64,000 nucleotides of DNA from Corallococcus macrosporus DSM 14697. Lineage in GTDB: Bacteria; Myxococcota; Myxococcia; Myxococcales; Myxococcaceae. Below the pieces are notes generated by a model. That model saw nothing but the letters and a program-made list of their open reading frames with translations. It ran no database searches and was not told the origin of the DNA. The stretch is from positions 8,884,001-8,948,000 of the forward strand of contig NZ_CP022203.1 in the NCBI RefSeq assembly GCF_002305895.1, in the 5' to 3' direction. The position numbers were made by a program, and so were the translations under genes. Below are positions 4,492-55,393 of the stretch, one piece after another. Within the stretch, counting starts at the first letter, position 1. Every line of letters begins with the position of its first letter.

Positions 4492-5843
4492 GCACTCCCA
4501 GAAGACGCCTGCTCATCCTGGATGATGACGCGGGGGTGGTGGACTTCCTCCGCGAGTCCCTGGACGCGCGCGGCTACGAAGCCGTGGGGCGCACCTCGCC
4601 CGAGGAGGCGCTGGCCCTCTTCGAGCGTGAGCCCTTCGACCTGGTCATCACCGACGTGGAGATGCCCCGCATGCGCGGCACGGAGGTGCTGGAGGCGCTG
4701 CTGACGCGCAAGCCGGGCCAGCTCGTGGTGCTCATCACCGCCTTCGGCAGCGTGGAGCTGGCGGTGGCGGCGGTGAAGGCGGGCGCCTGCGACTTCGTCA
4801 CCAAGCCCTTCAACATCGACGCGCTGGTCCTCACGCTGGAGCGCGCCTTCCGCGAGCGGCAGCTCCGCCGCGAAATCGTCCGCCTGCGCGCGGCCGTCCC
4901 CGGCGACACGCCCGGCGGCCTGGTGGCCCGCAGCCCCGCCATGCAGAAGGCGCTGGAGGTGTCCCGCCGCGCCGCGCGCAGCGACGCCACCGTGCTGCTC
5001 ACCGGCGAGACGGGCACCGGCAAGAGCGCCCTGGCGCGCTTCATCCACGAGTCCAGCCCCCGGCGCGCCCAGCCCTTCCTCCAGCTCAACTGCGCCGCCC
5101 TGCCCTCGGGCCTGGCGGAGAGCGAGCTGTTCGGCGCCAGGCGCGGGGCCTACACCGACGCGCGCGAGGACCGGGCCGGCGTCTTCGTGTCGGCCGGCGG
5201 CGGCACGCTCTTCCTGGACGAGGTGGGCGAGCTGTCGCTGGAGGTGCAGGCCAAGCTGCTCCAGGCCCTGGAGACGGGGCGCGTGCGCCCGCTGGGCTCC
5301 AGCACGGAGGCGCCCGTGCGCGCCCGCGTGCTGGCCGCCACCAACCAGCCGCTGGAGGTGCTGCTGCGCGAGGGCCGCTTCCGCGCGGACCTCTACTACC
5401 GCCTCAACGTCATCCGCATCGAGGTGCCCCCGCTGCGCGAGCGGCGCGAGGACCTCCTCCCGCTGGTGGACTTCTTCCTCGGGCGCCTGGGCGAGCAGCA
5501 GCAGCGCGAGGTGCTGGGCGTGTCCGCCACCGCGATGAAGCGGCTGCTGGCCCACGCGTGGCCCGGCAACGTGCGCGAGCTGGCCAACCTGCTGGAGCGC
5601 GCGGTGGCTTTGGCCGACCACGACACGCTGGTGCCGGAGGACTTCGACCTGCCGGGCGGCGGCGACGGCGGCCTGGCGTCGCTGCTGGACCGCGCCTCGG
5701 GAGAGGCCGCGCCCCTGGAGGAGGTGGAGCGCGCCTACGTGCGCCGGGTGGTGGAGGCCCAGGGCGGCAACAAGGCCGCCGCCGCGCGCATCCTGGGCAT
5801 CAACCGGCGCACGCTGTACCGCAAGCTGGACCTGGAGGAGTGA
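4488..5843 (+). CDS. epsI: NtrC-family response regulator (EpsI/Nla24 type)
   Basis: This is a DNA-binding response regulator of the enhancer-binding family. The receiver domain has the phosphorylation motif LVITDVEMPRMRG. The AAA+ domain has Walker A GETGTGKSALARF and Walker B GGTLFLDEVGEL, and a Fis-type helix-turn-helix closes the protein (NKAAAARILGINRRTLYRK). The loop that normally reads GAFTGA and contacts sigma-54 reads GAYTDA here (encoded near 5147-5164), so the usual glycine is replaced by aspartate. It overlaps the upstream kinase gene by four bases and is followed nine bases later by the convergent glycosyltransferase. In M. xanthus the equivalent gene (epsI, also called nla24) controls exopolysaccharide production and motility; the name is transferred from synteny. 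Confidence 0.88.
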   Translation: MSTPRRRLLILDDDAGVVDFLRESLDARGYEAVGRTSPEEALALFEREPFDLVITDVEMPRMRGTEVLEALLTRKPGQLVVLITAFGSVELAVAAVKAGACDFVTKPFNIDALVLTLERAFRERQLRREIVRLRAAVPGDTPGGLVARSPAMQKALEVSRRAARSDATVLLTGETGTGKSALARFIHESSPRRAQPFLQLNCAALPSGLAESELFGARRGAYTDAREDRAGVFVSAGGGTLFLDEVGELSLEVQAKLLQALETGRVRPLGSSTEAPVRARVLAATNQPLEVLLREGRFRADLYYRLNVIRIEVPPLRERREDLLPLVDFFLGRLGEQQQREVLGVSATAMKRLLAHAWPGNVRELANLLERAVALADHDTLVPEDFDLPGGGDGGLASLLDRASGEAAPLEEVERAYVRRVVEAQGGNKAAAARILGINRRTLYRKLDLEE

Positions 5844-37378: not shown

Positions 37379-38272
37379 CTACTCCTTCCTGAGAAGCTTC
37401 AAGAGCCGGTCGAGGTCATCGTACGAGAAGAAGTCCACCTCGATGGTGCCCTTTCCGGGGCTTCGTTCGGTGAGCCGGACCTTGGTCCCCAGCCGCCGCT
37501 GAAGCTCCTCCACCAGTGCCTTCACCTGCGGGCTCTGCTTGGGTGCCGCCTTGCCCGCGTCCTTCTTCCCGCTGGAGCGACTCTGCTGGACCAGGCGCTC
37601 CGTGTCACGCACGGAGAGCTTCTTCTCCGCGACTTGCCTGGCCAGGTTCTGCAGCTCCGGCAGCCGGGGCACGCCCAGCAGCGCGCGCGCGTGGCCCATG
37701 CTGAGCGAGCCATCCGCCACCATGCCCTTGACGTCCGCGGGCAGCGCCAGCAGGCGCAGGGCGTTGGCCACCGTGGAGCGCTCCTTGCCCACGCGCACAC
37801 TGACCTGCTCCTGCGTGAGCTTGAACTCCTCCACCAGGCGCTTGTAGCCCTCCGCCTCTTCAATGGGGTTCAGGTCCGCGCGCTGGAGGTTCTCCACCAG
37901 GGCCAGCTCGAAGGCCTGGACCTCCGTCACGTCGCGGACGATGGCGGGCACTTCCTTGAGGCCGGCGGCCTGGGAGGCGCGCCAGCGGCGCTCGCCCGCG
38001 ATGATGCGGTAGCCGTCACCGTCCTTGCGGACGAGGATGGGCTGGAGCACGCCCTGCGCCTTGATGGACTCGGAGAGCTCCTTGAGCTTCTCCTCGTCGA
38101 AGTAGGTGCGCGGCTGCTCCTTGTCGCGGTGGATGGACTCGATGGGGAGCTTGAGGACGCCGGCCTTCGCGGCCTGCTCGCCGCCCTTGCCGGAGCCGGC
38201 GGCGCCCGCCTGGGGGATGAGGGCGGACAGGCCGCGTCCCAGGGCCCGCTTCTGTGCGTCTGCTTTCACCAC
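37379..38272 (-). CDS. parB: Chromosome segregation protein ParB
   Basis: A 297-residue ParB that binds parS sites and spreads as a CTP-dependent clamp. N-terminal domain: KQKRALGRGLSALIPQ-type start, box I in IESIHRDKEQPRTYFDEEKL, and box II (CTP site) GYRIIAGERRWRASQAAGL, followed by ALVENLQRADLNPIEEAEGY. The helix-turn-helix is KLTQEQVSVRVGKERSTVANALRLLALP. A Lys/Pro linker precedes the dimerisation domain VKALVEELQRRLGTKVRLTERSP. The gene stop is three bases from bacM and its start 25 bases from the parA stop. Its targets are visible as the parS cluster at 42859-46063 in the same window. Confidence 0.96.
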   Translation of the reverse strand: MVKADAQKRALGRGLSALIPQAGAAGSGKGGEQAAKAGVLKLPIESIHRDKEQPRTYFDEEKLKELSESIKAQGVLQPILVRKDGDGYRIIAGERRWRASQAAGLKEVPAIVRDVTEVQAFELALVENLQRADLNPIEEAEGYKRLVEEFKLTQEQVSVRVGKERSTVANALRLLALPADVKGMVADGSLSMGHARALLGVPRLPELQNLARQVAEKKLSVRDTERLVQQSRSSGKKDAGKAAPKQSPQVKALVEELQRRLGTKVRLTERSPGKGTIEVDFFSYDDLDRLLKLLRKE

Positions 38273-38297: not shown

Positions 38298-39089
38298 TCA
38301 AGCCACGCGCCTGCGAGGGCTCTTGGGGGTGTCCCGCTTCATCAGCTCGCGGCCCAGCGCGAGGTAGCTCTCACACCCCTTCGACTTGATGTCGTACAGG
38401 ATGATGGGCTTCCCGAAGGAGGGGCACTCGGACAGGCGCACGTTGCGCGGGACGATGACCTCGAACACCTGCTTCTTGAAGTACCCGCGCACCTCTTCCA
38501 CGACCTGGTGGGCGATGTTGGCCCGCGAGTCGAACATGGTGAGCAGGATGCCCTCCATCTTCAGGTCCGGGTTGAGGCCCTGCTTCACCAGGTCGATGGT
38601 GTGGGTGAGCTGCGAGAGTCCCTCGAGCGCGTAGTACTCGCACTGGAGCGGGATGAGCACGGAGTCCGCGGCGGCCAGCGCGTTGAGCGTCAGCAGGCCG
38701 AGCGACGGCGGACAGTCGATGATGATGTAGTCGTATTCAGGGGCCAGCGGGCGCAGGGCATCGCGGAGGCGGAACTCGCGGTTGTCCTGGTTGACCAGCT
38801 CGACTTCGGCGCCGGTGAGGTCCGGCGTGGCCGGCACCACCTGGAGGTAGCGCAGCTCCGTGGGGTGGAGCAGCTCCTGGATGGGCCGGTCGTTGAGCAG
38901 CGCTTCGTAGATGGTGCCGTGGATGTTGTCCTGCTTGATGCCCAGGCCGCTGCCCGCGTTGCCCTGTGGGTCCATGTCCACCAGCAGCGTGCGCCGCTCC
39001 GCCGAAGCCAGGCTCGCGGCGAGGTTGATGGCGGTGGTGGTCTTCCCGACGCCGCCCTTCTGGTTGGAGATGCAGATGATACGACCCAC
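38298..39089 (-). CDS. parA: Chromosome partitioning ATPase ParA
   Basis: A 263-residue Walker-type ATPase that drives segregation of ParB-parS complexes over the nucleoid. The start is GTG 39089 (VGRIICISNQKGGVGKTT), preceded by a GAGAGGA ribosome-binding site; an upstream ATG frame to 39167 would add an unusual extension. Deviant Walker A is KGGVGKTTTAINLAA, A' is LLVDMDPQGNAGSGLG, and Walker B is YDYIIIDCPPSLGLLTLNAL. The C-terminus is basic (ELMKRDTPKSPRRRVA), consistent with nonspecific DNA binding. It leads the parA-parB-bacM operon. The region upstream contains a possible promoter at 39170-39198. Confidence 0.95.
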   Translation of the reverse strand: MGRIICISNQKGGVGKTTTAINLAASLASAERRTLLVDMDPQGNAGSGLGIKQDNIHGTIYEALLNDRPIQELLHPTELRYLQVVPATPDLTGAEVELVNQDNREFRLRDALRPLAPEYDYIIIDCPPSLGLLTLNALAAADSVLIPLQCEYYALEGLSQLTHTIDLVKQGLNPDLKMEGILLTMFDSRANIAHQVVEEVRGYFKKQVFEVIVPRNVRLSECPSFGKPIILYDIKSKGCESYLALGRELMKRDTPKSPRRRVA

Positions 39090-39169
39090 GGTGGCCCATC
39101 CTCTCTCTGCCCGGCCGTTGGCCTGGGCCCCGCGCGTGATGCAGTGCACGGTTGCGCGCTGATCCACGC

Positions 39170-39786: not shown

Positions 39787-41847
39787 TCAGCAGTTGTCGG
39801 GCTTCTGGGTGAGGACGTAGAGGAAGAGGGCGAAGTTGGCCACCAACTGGAGCATCACGACGGCCACGTAGGCGCCGCCCGTGGCCCAGAGCGCGGCGAC
39901 CTGCGCGATGAGCATGGTGCAGTTGGCGGCGATGGTGAACCAGCTCCCCGTCAGCGCGGCGCCGAAAATCTTGCCCAGGGTCCCCGCCGTGTAGAACGCC
40001 TTGATGATTCGGATGATGCTGTTGACGTCCTGTTGGGAGTACTTCGCCACGCTCTCCACCGTGTTGAGCAGCGCGGTGCTCTCCGAGACGGCCTTCTGGA
40101 TGGGGGAGATGAGGTTCGCCCCCGCGAAGCCCACGCCGAACGCCGCCAGCAGCATGGAGAAGGCCGTCGCCGCCACGGAGACGACCCACCCGATGCACGC
40201 GGTGTTGACGGTCAGCACCATCCGGCCGGCCTCCACCCTGCCCCGCGCGGTGTGGTGGTAATAGACGAAGTGGTTGCCCTCCACCTGGCCGGTGAAGGCG
40301 CCCACGGGCACGCCCCCGGGGCCGCCCACCCGCGCCAACCCCTGGTTCAGGTTGTCGCGGTAGAGCGACCGCATCCGCTCCCGCGTTGACTCGGGGAGCG
40401 CGGCCAGCAGGGGCTCCAGCGAGGCGAGCACGGACTGCGCCTGCGGCTGCGTCAGCAGCTTCTGGGTGGGGAAGGCCACCGGCGCCGCGAAGAATTGCTG
40501 GGCGGAGGGCAGCGGCGGATCCGCCTTCGCCACCTGCTGCCCCCTGACCTCCGCCCCCGGCGGGGGCGTGGAGTCCGACGGCGGCGTGGTGACGATGCCA
40601 GGCGTGGCCGTGTTGAGGAACAGCGGCGGGTGGCCCGTCACCTGGTTGCTCAGGACGATGCCATTCCAGGCGTAGTACGCCACGCAGCCGTCGACGTCGC
40701 TGGGGTCCCGCGACATGTACTGCTGCACCTCGCTGGCGGTGAGCGCTCGGGACCAGAGCCCCGCGGCCTGGAGGTGGCCCTGGAAATCGTAGGTCGCGCC
40801 TCCGGGGGCGGTGGAACTTGGCTGGGCGCCGAAGAGCCAGACGGGCTGCGCCAGCCGGGGCAGGACCTGCCCGCCGATGGTCATGTCGAGCTGGCCGTCC
40901 AGGTAGATGAGCAGCGTGCTGCCGTCATAGGTGGCCGCCAGGTGGTGCCACGTGTCGGGAGGCAAATGCAGCGTATGCCCCCAACCCTGCCCGCCGCCGT
41001 TGGCGCTGGATTTGGTGACCTGGAGATTGTACCCGTTGCCGTCCCACTGCAGGCCCAGCGAGAGCCCCTCGTTGCTGACGCCGTCCTGGCACGCGAACAG
41101 GGTATGCGAATCGTCCTGGAAGGGAGAGGGCGCGCCGACGTTGAACCACGCGTGCACGCTGAAGGGGCCGCCGTCCGCGACCGTCGTGAGGTTGTCGCGG
41201 GGTGAGGGCTGCGCCGCGCCGTTCACCAGCCGCAGCGACGGCGCCAGCATCACCACCTGCGCGCCGTGCTCCAGGTTCGCCTGCCCCTGGTTGTGTCCGG
41301 AGACATCCGCGGTGGAGCCATCGCTGAAGCTGAAGCAGGCGGCGAGCGTCGGGTCCGGCTGCGGGACGTCCCACACCGGCTTGAGCTGGTCGCCGGAGCG
41401 CATGGCGGACCAGAAGGCGACGTTGAAGAACTGCGCGTCGCAGGACGAGCCCAGCACGAACGGCGACGTGCTTCCCGCGATGTTGGACTGGCTCCCTTCA
41501 ATGAGGACCGTGCCGTCCACGTACACCGTGTAGCGGCCGGCGTTGGCGCCGGTCGACTCGAAGTTGATGAGGACGTACTGCCACCTGTCGGCCCGCAGCT
41601 CGATTTCGGAGACCTGATGCTGTGACGAGCCCGAGAGCCTGAACATCAGCTTCAAGCCGTGCAGGCCCAGGTACCAATTGGAGCCGGACTCCAGCAGCTT
41701 GCCGTCGTAGCTGGGCGCGCGCGGCCGGAGCCAGAAGCCGATGGCGTAGGACGCGCTTCCACTCAGGTCGAGCATGCAATGCCCGCCGAGTTGGATGTAC
41801 TGGCCATGGCGGAGGTCGGCAGCGCCGTATTGATACATGGGTCTCAT
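39787..41847 (-). CDS. Two-LamG-domain protein with hydrophobic C-terminal region
   Basis: A 686-residue protein starting at ATG 41847 (MRPMYQYGAADLRHGQYIQL), with GGAG eight bases upstream; a second Met is three codons later. Two concanavalin-type LamG domains are visible: residues about 15-180 (YVLINFESTGANAGRYTVYVDG) and about 205-385 (WHHLAATYDGSTLLIYLDGQ, HLQAAGLWSRALTASEVQQY). After a Pro-rich linker, a last region of about 200 residues holds hydrophobic segments (GWVVSVAATAFSMLLAAFG, IFGAALTGSWFTIAANCTML, ATGGAYVAVVMLQLVANFAL). There is no N-terminal signal peptide, odd for LamG proteins. The layout, binding modules plus membrane-active tail, would fit a delivered pore-former or a surface protein exported by another route. 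It sits alone between the par operon and parS. Confidence 0.72.
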   Translation of the reverse strand: MRPMYQYGAADLRHGQYIQLGGHCMLDLSGSASYAIGFWLRPRAPSYDGKLLESGSNWYLGLHGLKLMFRLSGSSQHQVSEIELRADRWQYVLINFESTGANAGRYTVYVDGTVLIEGSQSNIAGSTSPFVLGSSCDAQFFNVAFWSAMRSGDQLKPVWDVPQPDPTLAACFSFSDGSTADVSGHNQGQANLEHGAQVVMLAPSLRLVNGAAQPSPRDNLTTVADGGPFSVHAWFNVGAPSPFQDDSHTLFACQDGVSNEGLSLGLQWDGNGYNLQVTKSSANGGGQGWGHTLHLPPDTWHHLAATYDGSTLLIYLDGQLDMTIGGQVLPRLAQPVWLFGAQPSSTAPGGATYDFQGHLQAAGLWSRALTASEVQQYMSRDPSDVDGCVAYYAWNGIVLSNQVTGHPPLFLNTATPGIVTTPPSDSTPPPGAEVRGQQVAKADPPLPSAQQFFAAPVAFPTQKLLTQPQAQSVLASLEPLLAALPESTRERMRSLYRDNLNQGLARVGGPGGVPVGAFTGQVEGNHFVYYHHTARGRVEAGRMVLTVNTACIGWVVSVAATAFSMLLAAFGVGFAGANLISPIQKAVSESTALLNTVESVAKYSQQDVNSIIRIIKAFYTAGTLGKIFGAALTGSWFTIAANCTMLIAQVAALWATGGAYVAVVMLQLVANFALFLYVLTQKPDNC

Positions 41848-42858
41848 GAAGATGGCTCCAGGGTGAGAGAAACCGCGCCCGCCAGAGGTGACGGACGTCG
41901 GGACCGCGGCCTCGCCAGAGCAAGGGGCACGCCATGCCGTGCGCGCGCACGTGCTCGCTCGGACTCGCTCGGACTCGCGCGGCGTGAGCGCGCCGCGTGC
42001 GTCCCAGCGTCACGCAGGTGAGTCGAACCAGGACGCACCCGCGCCCTGCTGACGAGCGTCATGGCTTTGCACGGTCGAGCGCTTCGCCGTGTCCATGAAC
42101 GACCCGCGTGGGCGCGAGGTTGGCCGTGCCTGCCGAGGGTCCGCCTCGGCAGGAGCGCTGCGCCCCACCCTGAGCTGGAGGAGCGGAGCGCGAGGCCTGG
42201 CGTGGGACAGCGGATGGGACGGCGACTCGTGCTCGTGCGGAGGTGCCGCGCGAATGGCCTCGGACCTCTCACCTCCTCCACGCACCGCACCGGCTCGATG
42301 TGACGGCTCGGCCATCGCGACGCCTCCCCCTTGCTCCACATGAACGCGCGACCTTGCCCAGGCACGAGGACATGCCGTCGCACGAACCGGCGATGCGGCC
42401 ACGCGCACCGTCACGCCGCGCGCGCTGCTCCCAACGATAGGGGTGGTGGCGCATCGACACGCTGTCATCACCGTCGGCGGCCATCGCGCTCCGCGAGGCA
42501 CGACCACCGCGTTGACCGCGGAGGCCCAGGAGCACGGAGGCGCCGCGGTTCGAAGCGCCGGGACGGAGCGCGACACGATGCACGACGGGCATGAGCCATG
42601 GGTCTCCATGGGCGTGTGCGCGGGACCTTCCAGTTACCCGCCTGCGAGACTCGCGCGGAGCTCCGATGCACCGCGATGCCCGCTGCGGGTTCCATGCGGC
42701 CCAGGCCCTTGAGTGAGGGGTGAGCGCGGGTTGCCCTTTCAGGGCCCCTGACGCGTGCATGGCGGAGTCCTCACCGGCCCAGGCGAATCGCGCGCACCGC
42801 GCGACATGAACGCGGAGCCGTCAGCGGTCGGCTCGCGCCAGTGCCCGGTCCTCACCGC
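41848..42858. other. Non-coding flank of the centromere
   Basis: About 1 kb with no convincing gene. Open frames exist on both strands but have no family motif and lack the third-position GC pattern of the real genes around. No parS 14-mer occurs before 42859. Confidence 0.5.
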
Positions 42859-43437
42859 GTTCCACGTGGAGCAACCCCTGAGCACCGGCGGATGAGCGGC
42901 CGCCATCTTCTTCGTTGGGGTGCATGCGTCAGCACGGTCATCCAACGCGCGCACTCACGCTGAGCGGTTCGCGGGCACGGAGCGACGCGGTGCTCTTGAG
43001 GTGCTCGCGTCAGCACGCGCATCGAACACCCGCACTGACGATGCGCAGGGCGCGAGCGCGAAGCGCCCCGGGGCTCATGAGGTTCCTTTCCTCATCACCG
43101 CCCCCGAGGAGCGCGCATGCGGCCCGGCGTCTCCAGCCGCCGCGAAGAAGCACCTCAGGCACCGATGCTTCGGTCCACAGGAAGCTGGCGTCCGCGAACA
43201 CGCCGGTTCCTGCCGTGGCCACCCGTGATGAAGCGGCGGCTGGCGCCCCGTGTCGAGCTGGCGATGCACCACGAGCACGCTCGGGCCCCGGCATCGTTGC
43301 TTCGGTTCACATGGGGGCGGCGTTCGCGAGCGCGCGGGCACGCCGCCGCGACCATGACCGATGAAGCCGTATCTGGCCCCTCGCATGAAACTCGCGATGC
43401 GCGGCGAACACGCAGGGCGCGCGAGCACCGTGCTCGC

Positions 43438-43451
43438 GTTCCACGTGGAAC
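43438..43451. promoter_or_regulatory. parS site, perfect 14-mer
   Basis: GTTCCACGTGGAAC, fully palindromic; ParB-binding site. Confidence 0.93.
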
Positions 43452-43574
43452 TGGCGATGCACCGCGAACACGCGGGCACACCGCCACGACAACCCGCGAT
43501 GAAGCAGCGGCCAGGGCTCCACGTGGAACTGGCGATGCACCGCGAACACGCAGGGGCCCCGACACCGTGCTCGC

Positions 43575-43588
43575 GTTCCACGTGGAAC
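43575..43588. promoter_or_regulatory. parS site, perfect 14-mer
   Basis: GTTCCACGTGGAAC; lies in the first copy of the approximately 140-bp duplicated unit. Confidence 0.93.
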
Positions 43589-43665
43589 TGGCGCTTGCGG
43601 GCGCGTGGGACCACCGCCACGACAACCCGCGATGAAGCGGCCGTTGGCGCGAGCACCGCGCCCGC

Positions 43666-43679
43666 GTTCCACGTGGAAC
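43666..43679. promoter_or_regulatory. parS site, perfect 14-mer
   Basis: GTTCCACGTGGAAC, preceded by GCGCCCGC as at 44071. Confidence 0.93.
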
Positions 43680-43724
43680 TGGTGATGCACCGCGAACCCG
43701 CAGGGGCCCCAACACCGTGCTCGC

Positions 43725-43738
43725 GTTCCACGTGGAAC
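43725..43738. promoter_or_regulatory. parS site, perfect 14-mer
   Basis: GTTCCACGTGGAAC, only 45 bases after the previous site, one of the tightest pairs. Confidence 0.93.
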
Positions 43739-43856
43739 TGACGTTCATGAACTGCGGGACCACCGCCACGGCGACCCGCGATGAAGCAGCGGCCAGGGCT
43801 CCACGTGGAACTGGCGATGCACCGCGAACCCGCAGGGGCCCCAACACCGTGCTCGC

Positions 43857-43870
43857 GTTCCACGTGGAAC
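43857..43870. promoter_or_regulatory. parS site, perfect 14-mer
   Basis: GTTCCACGTGGAAC; counterpart of the 43575 site in the second copy of the duplicated unit. Confidence 0.93.
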
Positions 43871-44078
43871 TGGCGCTTGCGAGCGCGTGGGCACACCGCC
43901 ACGACAACCCGCGATGAAGCAGCGGCCAGTGTTCCACTTGGAACTGGCGATGCACCGCGAACACGCGTGAGTCCAGGCACCGCGCCCGCGTTCCACGTGG
44001 ACCTGACGTTCATGACCTGCGGGACCACCGCCACGGCGACCCGCGATGAAGCGGCCGTTGGCGCGAGCACCGCGCCGC

Positions 44079-44092
44079 GTTCCACGTGGAAC
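44079..44092. promoter_or_regulatory. parS site, perfect 14-mer
   Basis: GTTCCACGTGGAAC, followed by TGGTGATG as at 43680. Confidence 0.93.
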
Positions 44093-44238
44093 TGGTGATG
44101 AGGCGGACATGAACAAGGACTCGCGCAACCGCCGCGTTGGCGCGCGCACGCGGACGCGCACGTCCAAGTGAAGCGGCGCGAAGCGGAGCACGCGCGCACG
44201 CTCAATCACCATGCGCTCCATGCTCGGGCTCTTTGCCT

Positions 44239-44252
44239 GTTCCACGTGGAAC
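44239..44252. promoter_or_regulatory. parS site, perfect 14-mer
   Basis: GTTCCACGTGGAAC in unique flanking sequence. Confidence 0.93.
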
Positions 44253-44312
44253 GAAGCACCCGCATGGGCGCGCTGGATGCGCGCAAGCCAGCGAGCCGCT
44301 CATCGCTCCCGC

Positions 44313-44326
44313 GTTCCACGTGGAAC
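44313..44326. promoter_or_regulatory. parS site, perfect 14-mer
   Basis: GTTCCACGTGGAAC in unique flanking sequence. Confidence 0.93.
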
Positions 44327-44607
44327 ACGCAGAGCGCTGAGCACGCGCAGAAGCCGACGTCGGCGCGTCATCAACCGAGTCTCCCTGCTCCACCTGGACC
44401 AGGGCGCGGGCACTGCGCCTGACCACCGCGCGTTCGCACGTCGGCAACCGCGTCACCCTGTTCCACGTGAAACGACGACGACCACGCATGAGCATCCGGA
44501 ACTCGCATCGGCAACCGCGCCGCCCTGTCCCACGTGGAACGAGGAGCGCAGGCCTGAGCGTGAACAAGCGACCGCGCGCACCGTGTTCAGCCGCGCCTGC
44601 GGTTCGT

Positions 44608-44621
44608 GTTCCACGTGGAAC
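44608..44621. promoter_or_regulatory. parS site, perfect 14-mer
   Basis: GTTCCACGTGGAAC, flanked by TTCGT and CACGGATGG. Confidence 0.93.
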
Positions 44622-44679
44622 CACGGATGGCTTGAGCAGTTGCCCGCGCGTCACCGCCACATGCGCATGCCTTCACCGT

Positions 44680-44693
44680 GTTCCACGTGGAAC
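44680..44693. promoter_or_regulatory. parS site, perfect 14-mer
   Basis: GTTCCACGTGGAAC, 58 bases after the previous site. Confidence 0.93.
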
Positions 44694-44922
44694 GCCCGGC
44701 GAGGCGCAGCTCAACACCTTCAGGACCCGCGTATCCCAGCCACTGCCTTCTCCATGGGTTCACGGCGTCACGCCGTTCCGCGTGGAACGGCCGAACAGAT
44801 GAGCGCGCGAGCACCACGCAACGCCGCGTGCTCGCATCGCCCACGCCGCACGAACCGCGACAGACCTCGCGGCTGAGCCCTTCGTCTCCGTGCTTCGAGA
44901 CCCACGCGCAGACCTGCTTCAT

Positions 44923-44936
44923 GTTCCACGTGGAAC
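44923..44936. promoter_or_regulatory. parS site, perfect 14-mer
   Basis: GTTCCACGTGGAAC followed by CGTGGA, a right flank shared by several later sites. Confidence 0.93.
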
Positions 44937-45067
44937 CGTGGAAGACACCGCGCATGAGCGCTCACGTCCGCGTTCGATCCTTCCTTCCGCACCGCGAGCG
45001 GCGAAGGAAATCGCCCATCCGCGCGCCACACGGGTCCAGACCCGCCACGCACTCGAGCCCTCTTTGT

Positions 45068-45081
45068 GTTCCACGTGGAAC
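45068..45081. promoter_or_regulatory. parS site, perfect 14-mer
   Basis: GTTCCACGTGGAAC followed by CGTGG. Confidence 0.93.
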
Positions 45082-45199
45082 CGTGGCGGAGCGCACCCGC
45101 CCGCGCACCACGACTGCGCGCTTCGTGATGCACGGTGAAGTGGAACGCGCAGGAGCCCCAGGCCAGTTCAGCCAGACCAAGCGCCCAGGCCTGCTTCGT

Positions 45200-45213
45200 G
45201 TTCCACGTGGAAC
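45200..45213. promoter_or_regulatory. parS site, perfect 14-mer
   Basis: GTTCCACGTGGAAC in the first copy of the 75-base repeat; the second copy at 45360 carries a changed central base. Confidence 0.93.
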
Positions 45214-45505
45214 CTTGGAGGGCACCGCGCATGGGCGCTCGCAGCCGTTCATCGCGGCCGTGCGTTCGCTCCTTTCCACATCGAGATGGGCAGCGAAGTG
45301 AATCGCTCATCCGCGCGCCACACGGGTCCGCACCGGCCACGCGCCCAGGCCTGCTTCGTGTTCCAAGTGGAACCGTGGAGGGCACCGCGCATGGGCGCTC
45401 GCAGCCGTTCATCGCGGCCGTGCACTTCGTGGTGCACGGTGGAGCCAAACGGGCATGCGCACCCCAAGCCGGTTCAGACCGGCCACGTACTCAGTCCTTC
45501 TTCGT

Positions 45506-45519
45506 GTTCCACGTGGAAC
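45506..45519. promoter_or_regulatory. parS site, perfect 14-mer
   Basis: GTTCCACGTGGAAC followed by CGTGGATGG. Confidence 0.93.
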
Positions 45520-45803
45520 CGTGGATGGCGGCGCAACGCGTATGAGCAACTCTCGTCCGCTCGCCGCACCGATGCGGTCGGTCCGCCGCGCTGTTCCACC
45601 GCGCACGGCGGAGGTCCGGGCATGAGCACCGAAGCCGGTCGTCGTGGTCGCCCGCACGTCTTCCTATTTCACGTGGAACCGTGGCGCGCATACGCACGCG
45701 CTGCCCATCCATCACGTGCATGCGTTCGCACCTTCGCGCCCCACCACCACGGAACGGACATGCGCGCGTCGCCGTCACTCATCCCGTCCACGCGCCTCTT
45801 CCC

Positions 45804-45817
45804 GTTCCACGTGGAAC
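45804..45817. promoter_or_regulatory. parS site, perfect 14-mer
   Basis: GTTCCACGTGGAAC in unique flanking sequence. Confidence 0.93.
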
Positions 45818-46049
45818 CAGCGGGGCAGTTCGCATGCGCGCAGCCATGGTGTTCGGGTGTTCGCACCTTCGTGCCCCAACACCACGCGATGGGCGCGGGC
45901 GCACCAATCCCTCACCACGCCCCACTTCCTGTTCCATGTGGAGCCCCTGCGCATGTCCCGCCCGCTCATCACGTTCACGCGTTCGCGCACCATCGCGATG
46001 GACATGAGCGGACCCCAGCCGTTCATCACGACTGCCCGCGACGCCTCCT

Positions 46050-46063
46050 GTTCCACGTGGAAC
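46050..46063. promoter_or_regulatory. parS site, perfect 14-mer
   Basis: GTTCCACGTGGAAC; the last perfect site on the rsmG side of the cluster. Confidence 0.93.
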
Positions 46064-46490
46064 GGCCAGGAGCACGCGCCTCGCATGGGTCCACCGCATC
46101 CGCGGTCGAGCGTTCGCGCCTCCTGCTCCGCCGCGGACAACGGTGGTGCCGCGCATGAGCCAGTCGCGCCACCAAACCCAGTCCACTCAGTGCCTCACAC
46201 GCTCAACGGGCACGTCCGCATCGATGCGCAGGCACCAGGTCCCATGCCCCAACGTGGCGCGGGAAGTCCATCCAGCACCCGCGCGGATGACGGCGGGTCA
46301 CCGGCGTGAGTCCCCCGCTCCACGCGAGAGGAGCGCCAAGTAGAAGACGGGAGTCCGCCACGGGTGTTCGCGGTGATGCCCCGCGTCCGCTGGCTTCCGG
46401 GCTCCACGCGCAACCGAGCACCGGCGGCACACGCGAACAGCAGTTGCGCGTCACCCACGGCGCATGCGCTCGGCGCCCACGGCCCCGCGC

Positions 46491-46970
46491 CGCGCCGAGC
46501 ATCCGCACCCGCGACGCGCCGAGCATCCGCACCCGCGACGCGCCGAGCATCCGCACCCGCGACGCGCCGAGCATCCGCACCCGCGCCGCGCCGAGCATCC
46601 GCACCCGCGACGCGCCGAGCATCCGCACCCGCGCCGAGCATCCGCACCCGCGCCGCGCCGAGCATCCGCACCCGCGCCGCGCCGAGCATCCGCACCCGCG
46701 ACGCGCCGAGCATCCGCACCCGCGACGCGCCGAGCATCCGCACCCGCGACGCGCCGAGCATCCGCACCCGCGCCGCGCCGAGCATCCGCACCCGCGACGC
46801 GCCGAGCATCCGCACCCGCGACGCGCCGAGCATCCGCACCCGCGACGCGCCGAGCATCCGCACCCGCGCCGCGCCGAGCATCCGCACCCGCGCCGCGCCG
46901 AGCATCCGCACCCGCGACGCGCCGAGCATCCGCACCCGCGACGCGCCGAGCATCCGCACCCGCGACGCCC
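46491..46970. repeat. 24-bp tandem repeat, 20 copies
   Basis: The unit begins GAGCATCCGCACCCGCG and continues with (A/C)CGCGCC. Copies start at 46497, 46521, 46545, 46569, 46593 and 46617, then a short 19-base unit leads to 46636, and from there every 24 bases to 46948. Copies differ almost only by A or C at one position. Being a multiple of three, the repeat keeps long open frames in all phases on both strands, but the products (ASAPATRR, DARRVAGA types) are artefacts. It lies about 430 bases outside the last perfect parS site. Confidence 0.92.
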
Positions 46971-48192
46971 GCTCTTCTTGATGCCGTGGACTCACGATGA
47001 CCGAAGCCAACGCGGCCGAAGCTGGAGCAACTCCGCCAGCCGGACGCCGCGCATGTCGTGCCCGCGCCCGCGCTCGACTCGGCCCAGGCATCGAGCCCAC
47101 GGTGCATCCAGTTGGCGCACCGGTTCGGCTCCGCGCCATCCGCGACGAAGCCGTGCGCCGAGCCGCCTCCTTCACCGACAAGTTCATCCGACGTCGGCTC
47201 GCGTCCGTGAAGGAGGATGCGGCTGCTTTCCCAGCGCCATCTGTGCAGCGCGCTTCCAGGTCGAAGCCTGAGCGACTGCGTTCCGCCTGGAGCACGAACC
47301 GGGCGAACGCGCGACGGATGGAGGCCACCGCGAGGACGCGTGCGCCCCGTCCCCCACCCATCACACCGCGCACGCGGTTGCTCGCCGCGACCCGGTGCCT
47401 GACGACTTCTCCCCCTCCCCTGCCCCGCTCCACATGGAACGGGGCTCACCGCCACAGCCATCGAAGTGCCGCGGACCCGCGACTGCGTTCACGACGCGCT
47501 CATCCGTCCCGATGAATCGGCGCCGCGCGAAACGGCGGCGAGGGTGGACGCCATGGCCAACCGGGCCGAGCCTGTATCGATGCGACCCAGGTGACCTTGT
47601 CGCGAGGAGCCCTCGTCCAACGCGCGGGTTCTCCTCGGCATCCAGGGCACATGGGAGCAGTGCTTCGGATGACGATGGGCTCGCGGCCAACAGCAAAGGC
47701 CCGCGGACGAATGCACCGGCGTGTGACGGAGACTCCGCCCGAACACCGAACCCGTCGGCGAACACCTTGAGGCGGGGTCCTCGCCTTGCTGACAGGCGAG
47801 CAGCCTCATGGCGCGACCGCCATACAAGGCCCAGGCATCCAACGGCACGAGCCTCGTCATGCCCGCTCGCTGGCCAGCAAAGCGACCATGCTGGCGCTCC
47901 ATCAGCGCCCCGCGCTCCGACCTGGCTTCCTTGCGAAACGGCATGCACTTGGGCGGAAGCACCGGACTCCAACCGTGCTTCCGAGTCACTGGGTACCAGG
48001 CCGCTCACCGAGCAGGACTCCATCCCCTCCCCTGCCAGTGCCTCAAGTCGATGTGCGTCGTCACCAGCCAGCTCATCGCATACGCCGCTGAACGAACTCC
48101 GAACGCGGCCATCAAGCCGGCGCCGCGCCAATCGCCAAGCGTCTTCGCCGACGAACGCGCTGACTCCGTGCCCCAGTCCAACGGAGCAGCGC
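46971..48192. other. Non-coding stretch between the tandem repeat and the SUKH remnant
   Basis: About 1.2 kb with no recognisable gene. Both strands have open frames of 100-300 codons, but their translations have no motif and contradictory codon bias. One outlying parS-like word with two mismatches (GCTCCACATGGAAC) is at 47427-47440. Confidence 0.5.
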
Positions 48193-48508
48193 ATGACCAA
48201 CGCGATACCGTCACCCGACGTTCATGCCCGCGTGCTCCACGCCCGGGTCAACGAAGTGGAGAAGCTCGTCACAGCCCGTCAGCCTCGCCGAGGTTGAGCG
48301 CTTCGAGGCCCGACTCGGCGTTCCGCTCCCGGCCGGCTTCCGCGCGCTCCTCCTGAGAGCGGGCGCGGGCGCGGGGCCGTACTACGGCGTGTGGCGCCCC
48401 AAACGCATCTGGGATGAAACAAACAGTCTGGGATGCGCTGTGGGCCGCCGGGGAGCCGACCTGGACATCAGCACGACCACCGGCTGCATGGCTTGGGGGG
48501 CCGATTGA
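48193..48508 (+). pseudogene. Frameshifted, truncated SUKH/SMI1-KNR4-like gene
   Basis: An ATG at 48193 opens MTNAIPSPDVHARVLHARVN and runs as far as EVEKLV in one frame. Around 48280-48296 the coding sense moves to another frame, which reads SLAEVERFEARLGVPLPAGF, RALLLRAGAGAGPYYGVWRP and then KRIWDETNSLGC. The second part is the start of a SUKH (SMI1/KNR4) domain: the EVERFEARLGVPLPAGFRALL helix and YYGVW are its usual first motifs. It stops at 48508, well before a normal SUKH length of about 150-200 residues. SUKH proteins are immunity proteins to nuclease toxins, so this looks like a decayed immunity gene at the edge of the centromere. Confidence 0.62.
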
Positions 48509-48656
48509 GCCGTATGCCCGACTCCCCTCCCGCCCCCACCTTCCTCAGCCTGGATGACGGTCGCGCTCCAGCAGCGCTCGTTGCCGTCACGGGTACACGG
48601 ATGAAGCGCGCAAGCTTCGTCACGCGCGAGCACCGTGTGCAGCGCCCACTCCACGC

Positions 48657-49313
48657 TCACGAACGCGAAGCCACGGGCTCCACGAAGTACGTCTGCTTGT
48701 GTCGCGGATCCGCCTCGTAGGCATCGGCGAATGCGAGCGCGCCCGCTTCGCTCTCCAGCCGCGCCACCTCCGCGCGATGGCCGTATTCATCCTGGCGGAT
48801 GACAGCCCAGTCCTTCCGCGCGGGCTCCGCAGGGGCCGGCGTGCCACGGAGCTCGACGTAGTACGACTGCTTGTGCGCACGCGCTTCGAGGATGCGCGCG
48901 AAGCACGCCACATGGGCGCGCTCGGGAGACACCGCGACGTCGTAGCGGTTGCCCGTCTCATCCATGCGCGTCACGGCCCAGCCTTCTCGCGCGAGCGGGC
49001 GTCCGGCATCCGCACGCCACTCCACGACCTCGTCCTTCAACCCGAGGTGCGCCATGGCGTGGTCGACTTCCAAGGGCTCGATGAAGACCTGGAACCGGTC
49101 GGCCTCGCGCAACGAGACGACCACCAGCTCGAGCCCACACTCGCAAGCCCAACCCCAGTGCGCTTCCTGGAAGCGCCCGTCATCGCGAGCCACCACCCGA
49201 TGCGGCGTCCCCCACTGACGCTCGAAGCCGGAGCGCGAGGCCTTCATCGTGACGGCGTGAGCGTGACGCTCGAACAACCAGGCGCGAGGACGGTCCGTCG
49301 GAAGCGGCTTCAT
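48657..49313 (-). CDS. Unrecognised protein with a duplicated C-terminal motif
   Basis: A 218-residue protein starting at ATG 49313 (MKPLPTDRPRAWLFERHAHA). I do not recognise a family. The first half has a Trp/Cys segment EAHWGWACECGLELVVVSLR and the strand-rich DRFQVFIEPLEVDHAMAHLG. The second half contains two related units: REGWAVTRMDETGNRYDVAV ending with HKQSYYVE, and RKDWAVIRQDEYGHRAEVAR ending with HKQTYFVE. These give a W-A-V-x-R ... G-(N/H)-R ... H-K-Q-(S/T)-Y-(Y/F)-V-E repeat of about 55 residues. The codon pattern is that of a real gene, unlike the adjacent centromere. It is in the same direction as rsmG and mnmG, but separate from them. Confidence 0.72.
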   Translation of the reverse strand: MKPLPTDRPRAWLFERHAHAVTMKASRSGFERQWGTPHRVVARDDGRFQEAHWGWACECGLELVVVSLREADRFQVFIEPLEVDHAMAHLGLKDEVVEWRADAGRPLAREGWAVTRMDETGNRYDVAVSPERAHVACFARILEARAHKQSYYVELRGTPAPAEPARKDWAVIRQDEYGHRAEVARLESEAGALAFADAYEADPRHKQTYFVEPVASRS

Positions 49314-49541
49314 GCGTGACACCTCCGCGATGAAACCTAACGAGCACCCGAACTCGCGCCCACCCAATCTGGCGAAGCGCGAGCCCGTCCAAAGCGCTCA
49401 GCGTTCAAAGCGCCAGGCCGTGAAGTGGAGCACGAGCGCACTCACGAACCCGGGGTAGAGAGCGCCCAACCACAGCTCGACGAGCGAGTCGCTCCGTCCG
49501 TCCTCGGCTGCATCCGCGGGGCGGATGGGCGCGCCCCTCCC

Positions 49542-50195
49542 CTACTCCCTGGCGAACACCGCCACCTGCCGCTCGGCGCCGGAGAACGGCAGCCGGTACG
49601 CCCGCGCGGAGACGACGCGCAGCTGCCGCTCCGCCGCGCGCGCCGCCAGCTCCGCGTCCGTCTGCGCCTTGCCGAGCATCGCCACCACGCGCCCGCCCGG
49701 CTCCACATACGCGGGCGCCAGCGCGAGCCAATCCGGCAGGTCCATGAACGCGCGCGCAATCAGCACCTCGGCGCGCGGAATCCCCTCCGTCTCCGGCGCG
49801 CCCTCCGCGCGCGCGTGCAGTCCGCGCACGCCCTGCAAACCGAGGCTCGCCGCCGCGGCCTTGATGAACGCGACCTTCTTGCCCACCGTGTCCACCAGCG
49901 TCACGCCCAGCGCCGGCAACGCCAGCTTCAACGGCAGCCCTGGGAAGCCCGCGCCCGCGCCCAAATCCAGCAACGTCGCCGCGCTCGTGACTTCCGGCAG
50001 CACCGCGAGCGAATCCAGGAAGTGCTTCTCCAGCACCTCCTCCGGCGCCGTAATCGCCGTGAGGTTCACCTTCGCGTTCCACTTGAGCAGCTCGCTCATC
50101 AACCGCTGGAGCCGCGACCCCAGGTCCGCCGCCACCGTCACTCCCAGCGCCCGGCACCCCGCCGCGAGCTGATCCTCGAACCGCGCGTTATCCAC
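49542..50195 (-). CDS. rsmG: 16S rRNA (guanine527-N7)-methyltransferase RsmG (GidB)
   Basis: A 217-residue SAM-dependent methyltransferase that modifies G527 of 16S rRNA. The SAM site is LLDLGAGAGFPGLPLKLALP, preceded by KWNAKVNLTAITAPEEVLEK and HFLDSLAVLP, and followed by VTLVDTVGKKVAFIKAAAAS. All these are standard for the family. The start is GTG 50195 (VDNARFEDQLAAG), lying within a DnaA-box sequence. The start is 98 bases from the mnmG stop, and the two are normally co-transcribed. After its TAG stop, the same frame stays open for 48 more codons, ending at 49398 with a hydrophobic segment (WLGALYPGFVSALVLHFTAW); no good start is present for that piece. Confidence 0.94.
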   Translation of the reverse strand: MDNARFEDQLAAGCRALGVTVAADLGSRLQRLMSELLKWNAKVNLTAITAPEEVLEKHFLDSLAVLPEVTSAATLLDLGAGAGFPGLPLKLALPALGVTLVDTVGKKVAFIKAAAASLGLQGVRGLHARAEGAPETEGIPRAEVLIARAFMDLPDWLALAPAYVEPGGRVVAMLGKAQTDAELAARAAERQLRVVSARAYRLPFSGAERQVAVFARE

Positions 50196-50293: not shown

Positions 50294-52141
50294 TCAGTCC
50301 TCGGGCTGCGAGCAGACTGAGGGCGCCCCGGTTCCGCGCTTGAGCGCCACCAGCAGCAGCGACACCGCGGCGGGCGTCAGCCCTGGAATCCGGCGGGCCT
50401 GCCCCACCGTCCCCGGCCGATGCGCGGTCAGCTTCTCCACCGCCTCCGCGCTCAGCCCCCGCACCTCATTGAAGCGGTAGCCCTCCGGAATCCGCCAGCG
50501 GTCCGTGGACTCGGCCTCGCGCGCCGCGGCCCTGGCGGCCTGGGCCACGTAGCCCTCGTACTTCACCTCGACCTCCACCTCCTCGGCGACGTCGGGGGAC
50601 AGCGCCGGCCAGTCCTCGCGGCCCTCGCCGAGCTGCGCGTACGTCATCTCCGGCCGCCGCAGCTTCACCGCCAGCCCGGTGCGCTTCAGCCGCGCCACCT
50701 CCTCCGTCACCGCGCGGCCCCTCGCCTCCGCTCGCTCCAAGGCCTCGCGCGGGAGCAGCCCCACGCGGTGCCCATGCCGAGCCAGGCGCAGGTCCGCGTT
50801 GCCCTCGCGCAGCTTCAGGCGGTGCTCGGAGCGGCTGGTGAACATGCGGAACGGCTCGTCCACGCCCTTGGTCACCAGGTCATCCACCAGCACCGCGCCG
50901 TGGGCCTCGTCGCGGCCGGGCAGGAGCGGCGGCTCGCCCTTCACCTGGAGCGCGGCGTTGATGCCGGCCCACAGGCCCTGGAAGGCGGCCTCCTCGTAGC
51001 CCGAGGTGCCGTTGAGCTGCCCCGCGAAGTACAGGCCGGCGATGGCCTTCGTCTCCAGCGTGGCCTTGAGCTGCGTGGGCGGCGCGTAGTCGTACTCCAC
51101 CGCGTAGCCGAAGCGGACCACCTCCACCTGCTCCAGGCCTGGAATCGTGCGCAGGAAGTCGAGCTGCACGTCCGCGGGCAGGCTGGTGGACAGGCCCGCC
51201 GGGTACACCAGCGGCGAGGTGGGCCCCTCGGGCTCCAGGAAGACCTGGTGCCGCTCACGCGAGGCGAAGCGCACCACCTTGTCCTCCAGCGACGGGCAGT
51301 AGCGCGGCCCCCGGCCGACGATGTCCCCCTGGAACAGCGGCGAGCGGTGCAGGTTCTCCCGCAGCACCGCGTGCGTGCGCGGCGTCGTCTCCGTGAGCGC
51401 GCACATCACCGAGGGCTGACGGGGGAACGGCATGCCGCCCTCCCCTTCCACCTTGGTGCGCCAGGAGAAGGGCCGCGCCCGCGTGTCTCCCGGCTGCGGC
51501 TCCAGCGCGTCCCAGTCGATGCTCGCGCGCGCCAGCCGCGCCGGCGTGCCCGTCTTGAAGCGGCCCAGCGTGAAGCCCAGCGCGCGCAGCGACTCCGACA
51601 GGCCGCGCGCCGCCTCGTCGCCCAGACGACCGCCGACCTCCTTCTGCTCGCCCACGTGCATCAGCGCCTGGAGGAAGGTGCCCGTGGTGAGCAGCACCGC
51701 GGAGGCCGCCACCTGCGTGCCGTCCTTCAGCACCACGCCCTCCACCCGGCCGCCGCCCGCCACCAGCGCGGCGACCTCGCCCTCGCGCACCGTGAGGTCC
51801 GGCTGGGAGAAGAGCACCTCCTGCATGCCCACCGCGTAGGCGTCACGGTCGCAGAGCAGCCGGGAGGCCTGCACCGCGGGGCCCTTGGAGGCGTTCAGCG
51901 TCTTGAAGTGCGTGCCCGCCTTGTCGGCCGCGCGCCCCATCTCGCCGCCCAGCGCGTCCAACTCACGCACCAGGTGGCCCTTGGCCGTGCCGCCCACCGC
52001 CGGGTTGCAGCTCATCACCGCCGAGCGCTCGCGCTTCAGCGTCAGGCCCAACGTGGCCAATCCCATCCGCGCGCAGGCGAGCGCCGCCTCGCAGCCCGCA
52101 TGGCCCAGCCCCACCACGATGACGTCGTACCGGAGTCCCAT
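50294..52141 (-). CDS. mnmG: tRNA uridine-5-carboxymethylaminomethyl modification enzyme MnmG (GidA)
   Basis: A 615-residue FAD protein that with MnmE makes the cmnm5U34 modification of tRNA. The dinucleotide-binding start is [20 protein letters not shown]. Further MnmG signatures: [82 protein letters not shown] and the late [20 protein letters not shown]. The C-terminal MnmE-binding region ends with [20 protein letters not shown] and [20 protein letters not shown]. Length is normal and no defects are seen. It begins just after a 757-base intergenic region; mnmE is not in the window. Its neighbour rsmG is downstream. Confidence 0.96.
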
Positions 52142-54246: not shown

Positions 54247-55393
54247 TGGAATGAACGTTCCGTCCACCGCGCTCGGCGGCGGGTGGAGTCACCGACGCTG
54301 CTTGGAAGGAACGCTCCGTCCACGGCGCTCGGCGGCGGGCGGAGTCACCGACGCTGCTTGGAATGAACGTTCCGTCCACGGCGCTCGGCGGCGGGTGGAG
54401 TCACCGACGCTGCTTGGAAGGAACGTTCCATCCACGGCGCTCGGCGGCGGGTGGAGTCACCGGCGTTGATTGGAAGGAACGTTCCGTCCACTGCGCTGAC
54501 CCCGGGCAGGTGGCCACCTCTGCCTGGAAGGAACGTTCCGTCCACTGCGCTGACCCCGGGCAGGTGGCCACCTCTGCCTGGAAGGAACGTTCATTCCACC
54601 GCGCATGACGGCGGGCAGGGTGACCGGCTTTGCCTGGAAGGCACGTTCATTCCACCGCCCATGACGGCGGGCGGGGTGACCGGCTTTGCCTGAAAGGCAC
54701 GTTCATTCCACCGCCCATGACGGCGGGCGGGGTGACCGGCTCTGCCTGGAAGGAACGTTCATTCCACCGCCCATGACGGCGGGCGGGGTGACCGGCTCTG
54801 CCTGGAAGGAACGTTCATTCCACACCGCACCTGACTGTGGGCAGGATGGCCGGCTCTGCCTGGAAGGAACGTTCATTCCACCGCGCGCGGTGGCGGTGGC
54901 CGGCTCCGCCTGGAAGGAACGTTCATTCCACGGCGCGCGGTGGCGGGCGGAGTGGCCGGCTCTCCGTGGAAGGAGCGCTCATTCCAACGTGCGCGTTGGC
55001 AGGCGGAGTGGCTGGCTCTCCGTGGAAGGAGCGTTCCGTCCACCACAATCGGCAGCAACTACGGTGACGGAGCTTACATGGAATGAAAAATCCGCCCGCA
55101 AACGCCTGACGGTGGGCAGGGTGGTCGCCGCTGCCTGGAATGAACGTTCCCTCCACCGTGCTTGGCGGCGGGGGAGCACCCGGCGCAACTTGGAAGGAAC
55201 GTTCCTTCCACCGCGCTGACTCGGGGCAGGGTGGCCGCCGCTACCTGGACTGAGTGGCCGCCGACCGCGAGCGGCAACAGCGACCTAATGTGACCGAGCC
55301 TGCTTGGAATGAACGTTCCCTCCACCGTGCCTGGCGGCGAGCAGTGTGAGCGCCTCTACCTGGAATGAACGTTCCTTCCGCTGCGCCTGACTA
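54247..55393. repeat. Array of about 20 degenerate 56-62-bp repeats with a GGAAnGAACGTTCC core
   Basis: Each unit contains TGGAA(G/T)GAACGTTCC(N)TCCA, which is palindromic around AACGTT, followed by roughly 40 bases rich in CGGCGGG. The last array half uses TTCATTCCA on the right side. I count cores starting near 54247, 54303, 54359, 54415, 54474, 54535, 54575, 54635, 54690, 54746 and 54802, and then about every 60 bases to 55371. Two copies (near 55079 and 55246) are strongly decayed. The open frames across the array are artefacts. The array ends abruptly at 55393, where an IS-derived segment begins, and one more unit appears after that segment at 57356-57402. Confidence 0.88.

What the first reader, a model, noticed from the sequence alone, without database searches (positions are those of the whole stretch)
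41848..48192. A coding-free stretch of about 6.3 kb around the centromere
Myxobacterial genomes are gene-dense, yet between the LamG gene and the SUKH remnant I find no believable gene. Many long open frames exist, but they are GC-driven and contradict each other. The stretch carries parS sites, segmental duplications and a 20-copy tandem repeat, so it behaves like a dedicated centromere domain.
Basis: seen in the sequence. Interest (0 to 1): 0.62.

Follow-up and report, generated by a model that had tools for sequence, protein, structure and literature searches.

The report
Gene-free, fast-evolving bacterial centromere (parS array)
The 6.8-kb stretch truly holds no intact gene: it is the chromosome's centromere, about 26 binding sites for the segregation protein ParB set in fast-changing, repeat-built filler DNA, and the same gene-free block has grown in place across the whole group of myxobacteria.

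Summary
A gene-finding model trained on 800 kb of this genome elsewhere finds no gene from 41848 to 48656; all 45 open frames of 100 aa or more score as non-coding, and their number is what shuffled DNA gives. The only protein trace is a broken SUKH-1 remnant (48197-48508). In the sample only an rRNA operon is a comparably long non-coding run; the next is 1.9 kb.
The stretch holds 26 parS sites (16 perfect, all the perfect sites of the chromosome) at 42860-46062, between parA-parB and rsmG-mnmG, about 43 kb from dnaA. It is the orthologue of the known Myxococcus xanthus parS cluster.
Comparison with 39 relatives adds what I did not find in the papers searched. The parA-rsmG gap grows from about 75 bp with one parS to 8-14 kb with 18-48 sites in Myxococcus. 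None of 721 parS lies in a predicted gene. In close species pairs, parS motifs stay nearly unchanged while the filler changes faster than synonymous sites, with frame-breaking indels and species-specific repeat units. The 24-bp repeat is private to this genome.
"Centromere" and "gene-free" are well supported. That being gene-free is itself selected is plausible but unproven.

The parts
41848..48656 (.). Coding-free stretch (6,809 bp) between the LamG gene and the conserved gene 48657-49367
   Evidence: GC phase, HMM, ORF scores, Pfam/NCBIfam/Rfam
42860..46062 (.). parS array: 26 sites with at most 1 mismatch to TTCCACGTGGAA, 16 perfect
43439..44091 (.). Left part of the array: units of about 132 bp, each with two parS (spacings 59 + 73), tandemly duplicated
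44924..46062 (.). Right part of the array: mostly one parS per 119-160 bp unit with related spacers
46484..46968 (.). 24-bp tandem repeat, 20.4 copies, not found in any relative's locus or in 800 kb of the genome sample
48197..48508 (+). Broken remnant of a SUKH-1 (SMI1/KNR4) gene; only profile positions 1-36 match
   Evidence: Pfam PF09346 E 1.9e-5
41848..42043 (-). Upstream region of the LamG gene, 71% identical in L019; probably its promoter/leader
   Evidence: function inferred
37379..38272 (-). parB
   Evidence: TIGR00180 E 8e-57
38298..39167 (-). parA
   Evidence: Walker A motif KGGVGKTT in the translation; orthologous and adjacent to parB in all loci
39787..41847 (-). LamG-domain gene lying inside the parA-rsmG interval; otherwise found only in L019
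   Evidence: Pfam PF13385
48657..49367 (-). Conserved Myxococcus gene of unknown function, first gene right of the stretch
   Evidence: tblastn 45-87% in most genus loci, positive coding score
49542..50195 (-). rsmG (gidB)
   Evidence: assigned from the translation and its place next to mnmG; conserved beside mnmG in nearly all loci; no profile search run on this frame
50294..52141 (-). mnmG (gidA)
   Evidence: Pfam GIDA E 6e-149

Best explanation
The stretch is the chromosome's regional centromere and its filler. parS sites sitting between parA and rsmG were multiplied in place by repeated tandem duplication of units of about 60-240 bp, giving an array with no genes in it. Each parS loads ParB clamps, which then slide into the neighbouring DNA; many close sites in cis build one dense partition complex that ParA pulls to the pole. 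Selection preserves the parS motifs and their clustering. The spacers and the parS-free shoulders are fast-changing, satellite-like DNA. Shown here: no genes, parS identity and conservation, place, expansion in place, duplication structure, spacer turnover. Inferred from M. xanthus work: ParB loading, sliding and segregation.
For: Non-coding. All perfect parS of the genome here. parAB and rsmG/mnmG flanks, dnaA about 43.5 kb away. Expansion series on a tree: one parS in 75-78 bp, then 3-5 in 0.4-2 kb, 9-20 in 2.7-8 kb, 18-48 in 8-14 kb; gap against parS number Spearman 0.86; 0 of 721 parS in predicted coding DNA. Close pairs: parS 94-100% against non-parS 80-93% where well aligned; indels mostly not multiples of 3 (2 of 30, 6 of 42, 7 of 44); substitutions flat over three phases; filler rate exceeds third codon positions next door in most comparisons. 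Flanks 95% identical but only 24-29% of the interval alignable. Species-specific units: 132 bp here, 136 in L059, 236 in L028, 238 in L032. M. xanthus ParB binds this motif and the cluster in vitro (PMC3899335, PMC3778016).
Against: No ChIP, transcript or segregation data could be examined for this species. About half of the stretch carries no parS, so this model treats that half as filler, whereas total interval length stays fairly constant in the genus (CV 0.15) although sequence does not.
Confidence: 0.88

Rival explanations
1. Selected gene-free platform: being free of genes and promoters is itself useful, because RNA polymerases and other bound proteins stall or knock off sliding ParB clamps. 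The block, shoulders included, is kept clear so that clamps can spread and condense the DNA. (This is an addition to the best explanation rather than a contradiction of it.)
For: No parS in coding DNA in 40 loci and few genes inside arrays. Shoulders without parS persist in Myxococcus, and in g18 genomes the non-coding block is 11.3-11.5 kb while parS spans only 2.4-3.2 kb. Interval length is steadier than sequence or site number. No sigma-70-like promoter in the stretch. Single bound proteins block ParB sliding in vitro, and M. xanthus ParB mutants spread unusually far, which the authors tentatively put down to low transcription (PMC9242446).
Against: In most g26 genomes a gene abuts the array with almost no shoulder. 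LamG sits next to the array here. Genes occur between parS groups in L024 and L060. A sigma-70 consensus scan is weak evidence in a high-GC myxobacterium. Non-coding DNA is also what tandem duplication of intergenic DNA gives for free.
Confidence: 0.35
2. Gene graveyard: the stretch is mainly decayed genes, and the parS sites merely survive in it.
For: A real SUKH-1 remnant lies at the right edge.
Against: No other protein trace in any of the frames beyond a chance-level match. Much of the filler consists of repeats of parS-bearing units. Relatives have equally gene-free but mostly unalignable DNA.
Confidence: 0.05
3. Hidden genes or a structured non-coding RNA: the stretch carries unusual short genes or RNA missed by the models.
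For: Small genes and novel RNAs escape such searches; no transcript data were available.
Against: Flat phase substitution, single-base indels and rapid turnover in close relatives; no Rfam family above chance; no strongly conserved block in the right shoulder.
Confidence: 0.04

Closest known systems
Myxococcus xanthus chromosomal parABS centromere (22-24 parS in about 3 kb upstream of parA)
   Same: Same motif, same place next to parAB near oriC, similar site number. Locus L020 reproduces the published DK1622 site distances exactly (2,859, 3,038 and 3,491 bp).
   Different: Here a LamG gene lies between parA and the array, and the sub-repeats and the 24-bp array are private. The gene-free, satellite-like nature is not discussed in the passages of the two M. 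xanthus papers that I searched.
Chromosomal parS of other bacteria (Bacillus subtilis, Caulobacter, Pseudomonas, Streptomyces; from general knowledge)
   Same: Same 16-bp palindrome and ParB/ParA partners.
   Different: Fewer or widely spread sites, usually among genes; no compact array of tens of sites in several kb of non-coding DNA.
Regional satellite centromeres of eukaryotes
   Same: Works like them in layout only: a conserved binding motif within fast-turning, tandemly duplicated, gene-free, species-specific DNA.
   Different: Different proteins, sequence-specified loading, kilobase not megabase scale; an analogy, not kinship.

Membership tests
Chromosomal parABS centromere | Cluster of parS palindromes far above chance | tested here: met
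   26 sites with at most 1 mismatch; 1.3 expected in the window even allowing 2 mismatches; all 16 perfect genomic sites here
Chromosomal parABS centromere | parA and parB on the same chromosome, close to the sites | tested here: met
   parB TIGR00180, parA adjacent, about 3.7 kb from the first site
Chromosomal parABS centromere | Near the replication origin | tested here: met
   dnaA at base 138; the array ends about 43.5 kb before the chromosome end
Chromosomal parABS centromere | parS motifs under purifying selection | tested here: met
   94-100% against 80-93% for the rest of the well-aligned interval in close species pairs; tested in relatives, not on the window itself
Chromosomal parABS centromere | ParB binds the sites in vivo and the locus drives segregation | not testable with these tools
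   Binding in vitro and segregation roles were shown for M. xanthus in papers; no data for this species
Protein-coding region | Codon periodicity, coding score or protein homology | tested here: not met
Regional satellite-like centromere (descriptive) | Tandemly duplicated, species-specific units and rapid turnover | tested here: met
   within-array best-partner identity 0.65 against 0.51 to the nearest other species
Regional satellite-like centromere (descriptive) | Absence of genes is selected, not incidental | tested here: inconclusive
   Shoulders persist in Myxococcus but hardly in g26; LamG tolerated

The most novel reading that the evidence does not exclude
Myxococcaceae have evolved a bacterial counterpart of a regional satellite centromere: a gene-free block that grew in place from one parS to tens, is renewed by tandem duplication, keeps its size while its sequence turns over, and is kept free of genes because sliding ParB clamps need an unobstructed track.
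Probability: 0.35. Interest if true: 0.7.

Novelty: new member of a known kind. Interest (0 to 1): 0.5.

Why it matters
The parS cluster is known in M. xanthus, but its gene-free nature, in-place expansion and satellite-like turnover were not mentioned in the papers I could search. M. xanthus ParB spreads unusually far, and low transcription was suggested as a possible reason; a gene-free block of nearly 9 kb around the sites (8.8 kb in L020, which has the M. xanthus layout) is a concrete alternative that can be tested in a model organism. The lineage also gives a natural series from one to about 48 sites for asking what extra parS copies do.

Tried and rejected
Helical phasing of parS spacings: no signal. 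A second conserved motif besides parS: none convincing in the k-mer scan, apart from a C-rich AGGGGAGG-type enrichment left unexplained. The 24-bp repeat as a shared centromere part: rejected, private to this genome among the loci searched. parS number as a function of genome size within the genus: no clear correlation (rho 0.28, p 0.16). A conserved ncRNA in the right shoulder: no conserved island; no Rfam hit above chance. tblastx similarity to relatives inside the stretch: short scattered pieces in several frames on both strands, so DNA homology rather than coding.

Full report
WHAT WAS CHECKED. The window is bases 8,884,001-8,948,000 of a complete 8.97-Mb chromosome. Left of LamG are parA (38298-39167) and parB (37379-38272; TIGR00180). 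To the right come a conserved unknown gene (48657-49367), rsmG (49542-50195) and mnmG (50294-52141). So the stretch sits inside the classic mnmG-rsmG-parA-parB neighbourhood and splits rsmG from parA. dnaA is at base 138 of the chromosome, so the array is about 43.5 kb from the origin-proximal end.

NO GENES. The high GC content makes strong codon periodicity in real genes here. The range of GC over the three phases averages 0.37 outside the stretch and 0.085 inside. A seven-state HMM with coding frames on both strands, trained on 40 segments (800 kb) of the same genome outside the window, calls 41821-48624 non-coding apart from a 63-nt blip and the 24-bp repeat, whose period mimics codons. 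In those 800 kb the only comparable non-coding run is an rRNA operon (6.7 kb); the next is 1.9 kb. There are 45 frames of 100 aa or more; base-shuffled copies give 37.5 on average. Every one of the 45 scores as non-coding, whereas the eight flanking genes tested score positive. Of 58 frames from the stretch plus the neighbouring 48657-49367 ORF, Pfam matches one, the first 36 positions of SUKH-1 at 48197-48508. The stretch without intact genes therefore ends at 48656.

WHAT IS IN IT. parS (TTCCACGTGGAA core) occurs 26 times with at most one mismatch at 42860-46062, 16 times perfectly; those are all the perfect sites of the chromosome. The left part repeats a unit of about 132 bp with two parS; the right part repeats units of 119-160 bp with one. 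The 24-bp repeat (46484-46968) occurs in no relative's locus and nowhere in the genome sample.

COMPARISON. Perfect parS counts are 15-35 in all 27 genomes of the genus, 3-19 in the core genera I compared in detail, and mostly 0-5 elsewhere in the class. I fetched the parAB region of relatives; 40 loci including the window span parA to rsmG. In two outgroup genera the gap is 75-78 bp with one parS (imperfect in L057). In other families of the order parS also sits in or near this gap, with few copies; one of those outgroup sites (in L111) falls in predicted coding DNA. On a tree of ParA+ParB+RsmG+MnmG the gap and site number rise together: 3-5 sites in 0.4-2.2 kb, 9-20 in 2.7-8.4 kb, 18-48 in 7.8-13.9 kb in Myxococcus; a g18 pair has 12.7-12.8 kb with 15-23 sites (Spearman 0.86). 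The rise is not strictly monotonic: some g16 genomes hold only 3-5 sites. Across the 40 loci 721 parS were found and none in predicted coding DNA.

HOW IT EVOLVES. In close pairs of species (flanks 96-98% identical) the parS motifs are 94-100% identical where well aligned while other interval DNA is 80-93%; in two pairs (L020/L022, L039/L040) poorly aligned array sections lower both figures outside those parts. Indels are mostly single bases and seldom multiples of three, and substitutions are flat over phases at rates mostly above third codon positions of neighbouring genes. At 95% flank identity only a quarter of this window's interval still aligns. Flanks of parS resemble other copies in the same array more than those of the nearest species (0.65 against 0.51 here), though in the closest trio (L020, L022, L023) orthologous copies are still more alike. 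Repeat units differ between species. This is turnover by duplication and decay.

IS IT KNOWN. M. xanthus has a published cluster of 22-24 parS about 4 kb upstream of parA, bound by ParB in vitro (PMC3899335, PMC3778016). The site distances in locus L020 equal the published DK1622 coordinates (2,859, 3,038 and 3,491 bp), so L020 is M. xanthus or has its exact layout; its non-coding block is 8.8 kb. The words intergenic and non-coding do not occur in the M. xanthus chromosome paper and intergenic not in the ParABS paper, and searches for an account of such arrays in other myxobacteria or as satellite-like DNA found none. The library holds open-licence papers only, so this is weak evidence of novelty. 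The object itself is a new member of a known kind.

MECHANISM. From established ParB work, each parS catalyses closing of a ParB-CTP clamp that slides away; neighbouring sites add up to one dense complex moved by ParA. Whether gene-free DNA is selected so that clamps slide freely is open. For: single bound proteins block sliding in vitro, and M. xanthus ParB mutants spread unusually far, tentatively attributed to low transcription (PMC9242446); parS-free shoulders persist in Myxococcus. Against: in most g26 genomes a gene abuts the array, and LamG sits beside it here. I put this at about one in three.

LIMITS. No expression or binding data were available; the coding model was trained on one genome and applied to relatives; only 9% of the genome was sampled for the background; species names of G genomes are not given.

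Noticed in passing
window 54247-55044: Fourteen copies of a 56-bp repeat with GGAACGTTCC (parS half-sites in reversed order) in a 1.5-kb non-coding run; the array is at a single place in the genome apart from short weak matches. A similar 60-bp repeat lies next to rsmG in L051.
   Followed up: partly
L030 and L032, parA-rsmG interval: Non-coding blocks of 11.3-11.5 kb of which parS covers only 2.4-3.2 kb; L032 also has about 10 copies of a 127-bp repeat without parS.
   Followed up: partly
L028, parA-rsmG interval 3794-5193: Higher-order repeat: three parS at 77/78/81-bp spacing inside a 236-bp unit repeated about six times.
   Followed up: partly
window 47404-47424 and 48016-48036, and Myxococcus intervals: CCCTCCCC/AGGGGAGG-type words are enriched in 10 of 13 genus intervals (63 against 4.4 expected); meaning unknown.
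   Followed up: no
window 39787-41847 and L019: A LamG gene in the parA-parS gap is present here and in L019 (77% identical) but not in L018, the sister of L019, so it was moved or lost repeatedly.
   Followed up: no
window 48657-49367: Conserved Myxococcus protein of unknown function with what look like internally repeated segments and no Pfam match, beside the centromere in most genus loci.
   Followed up: no
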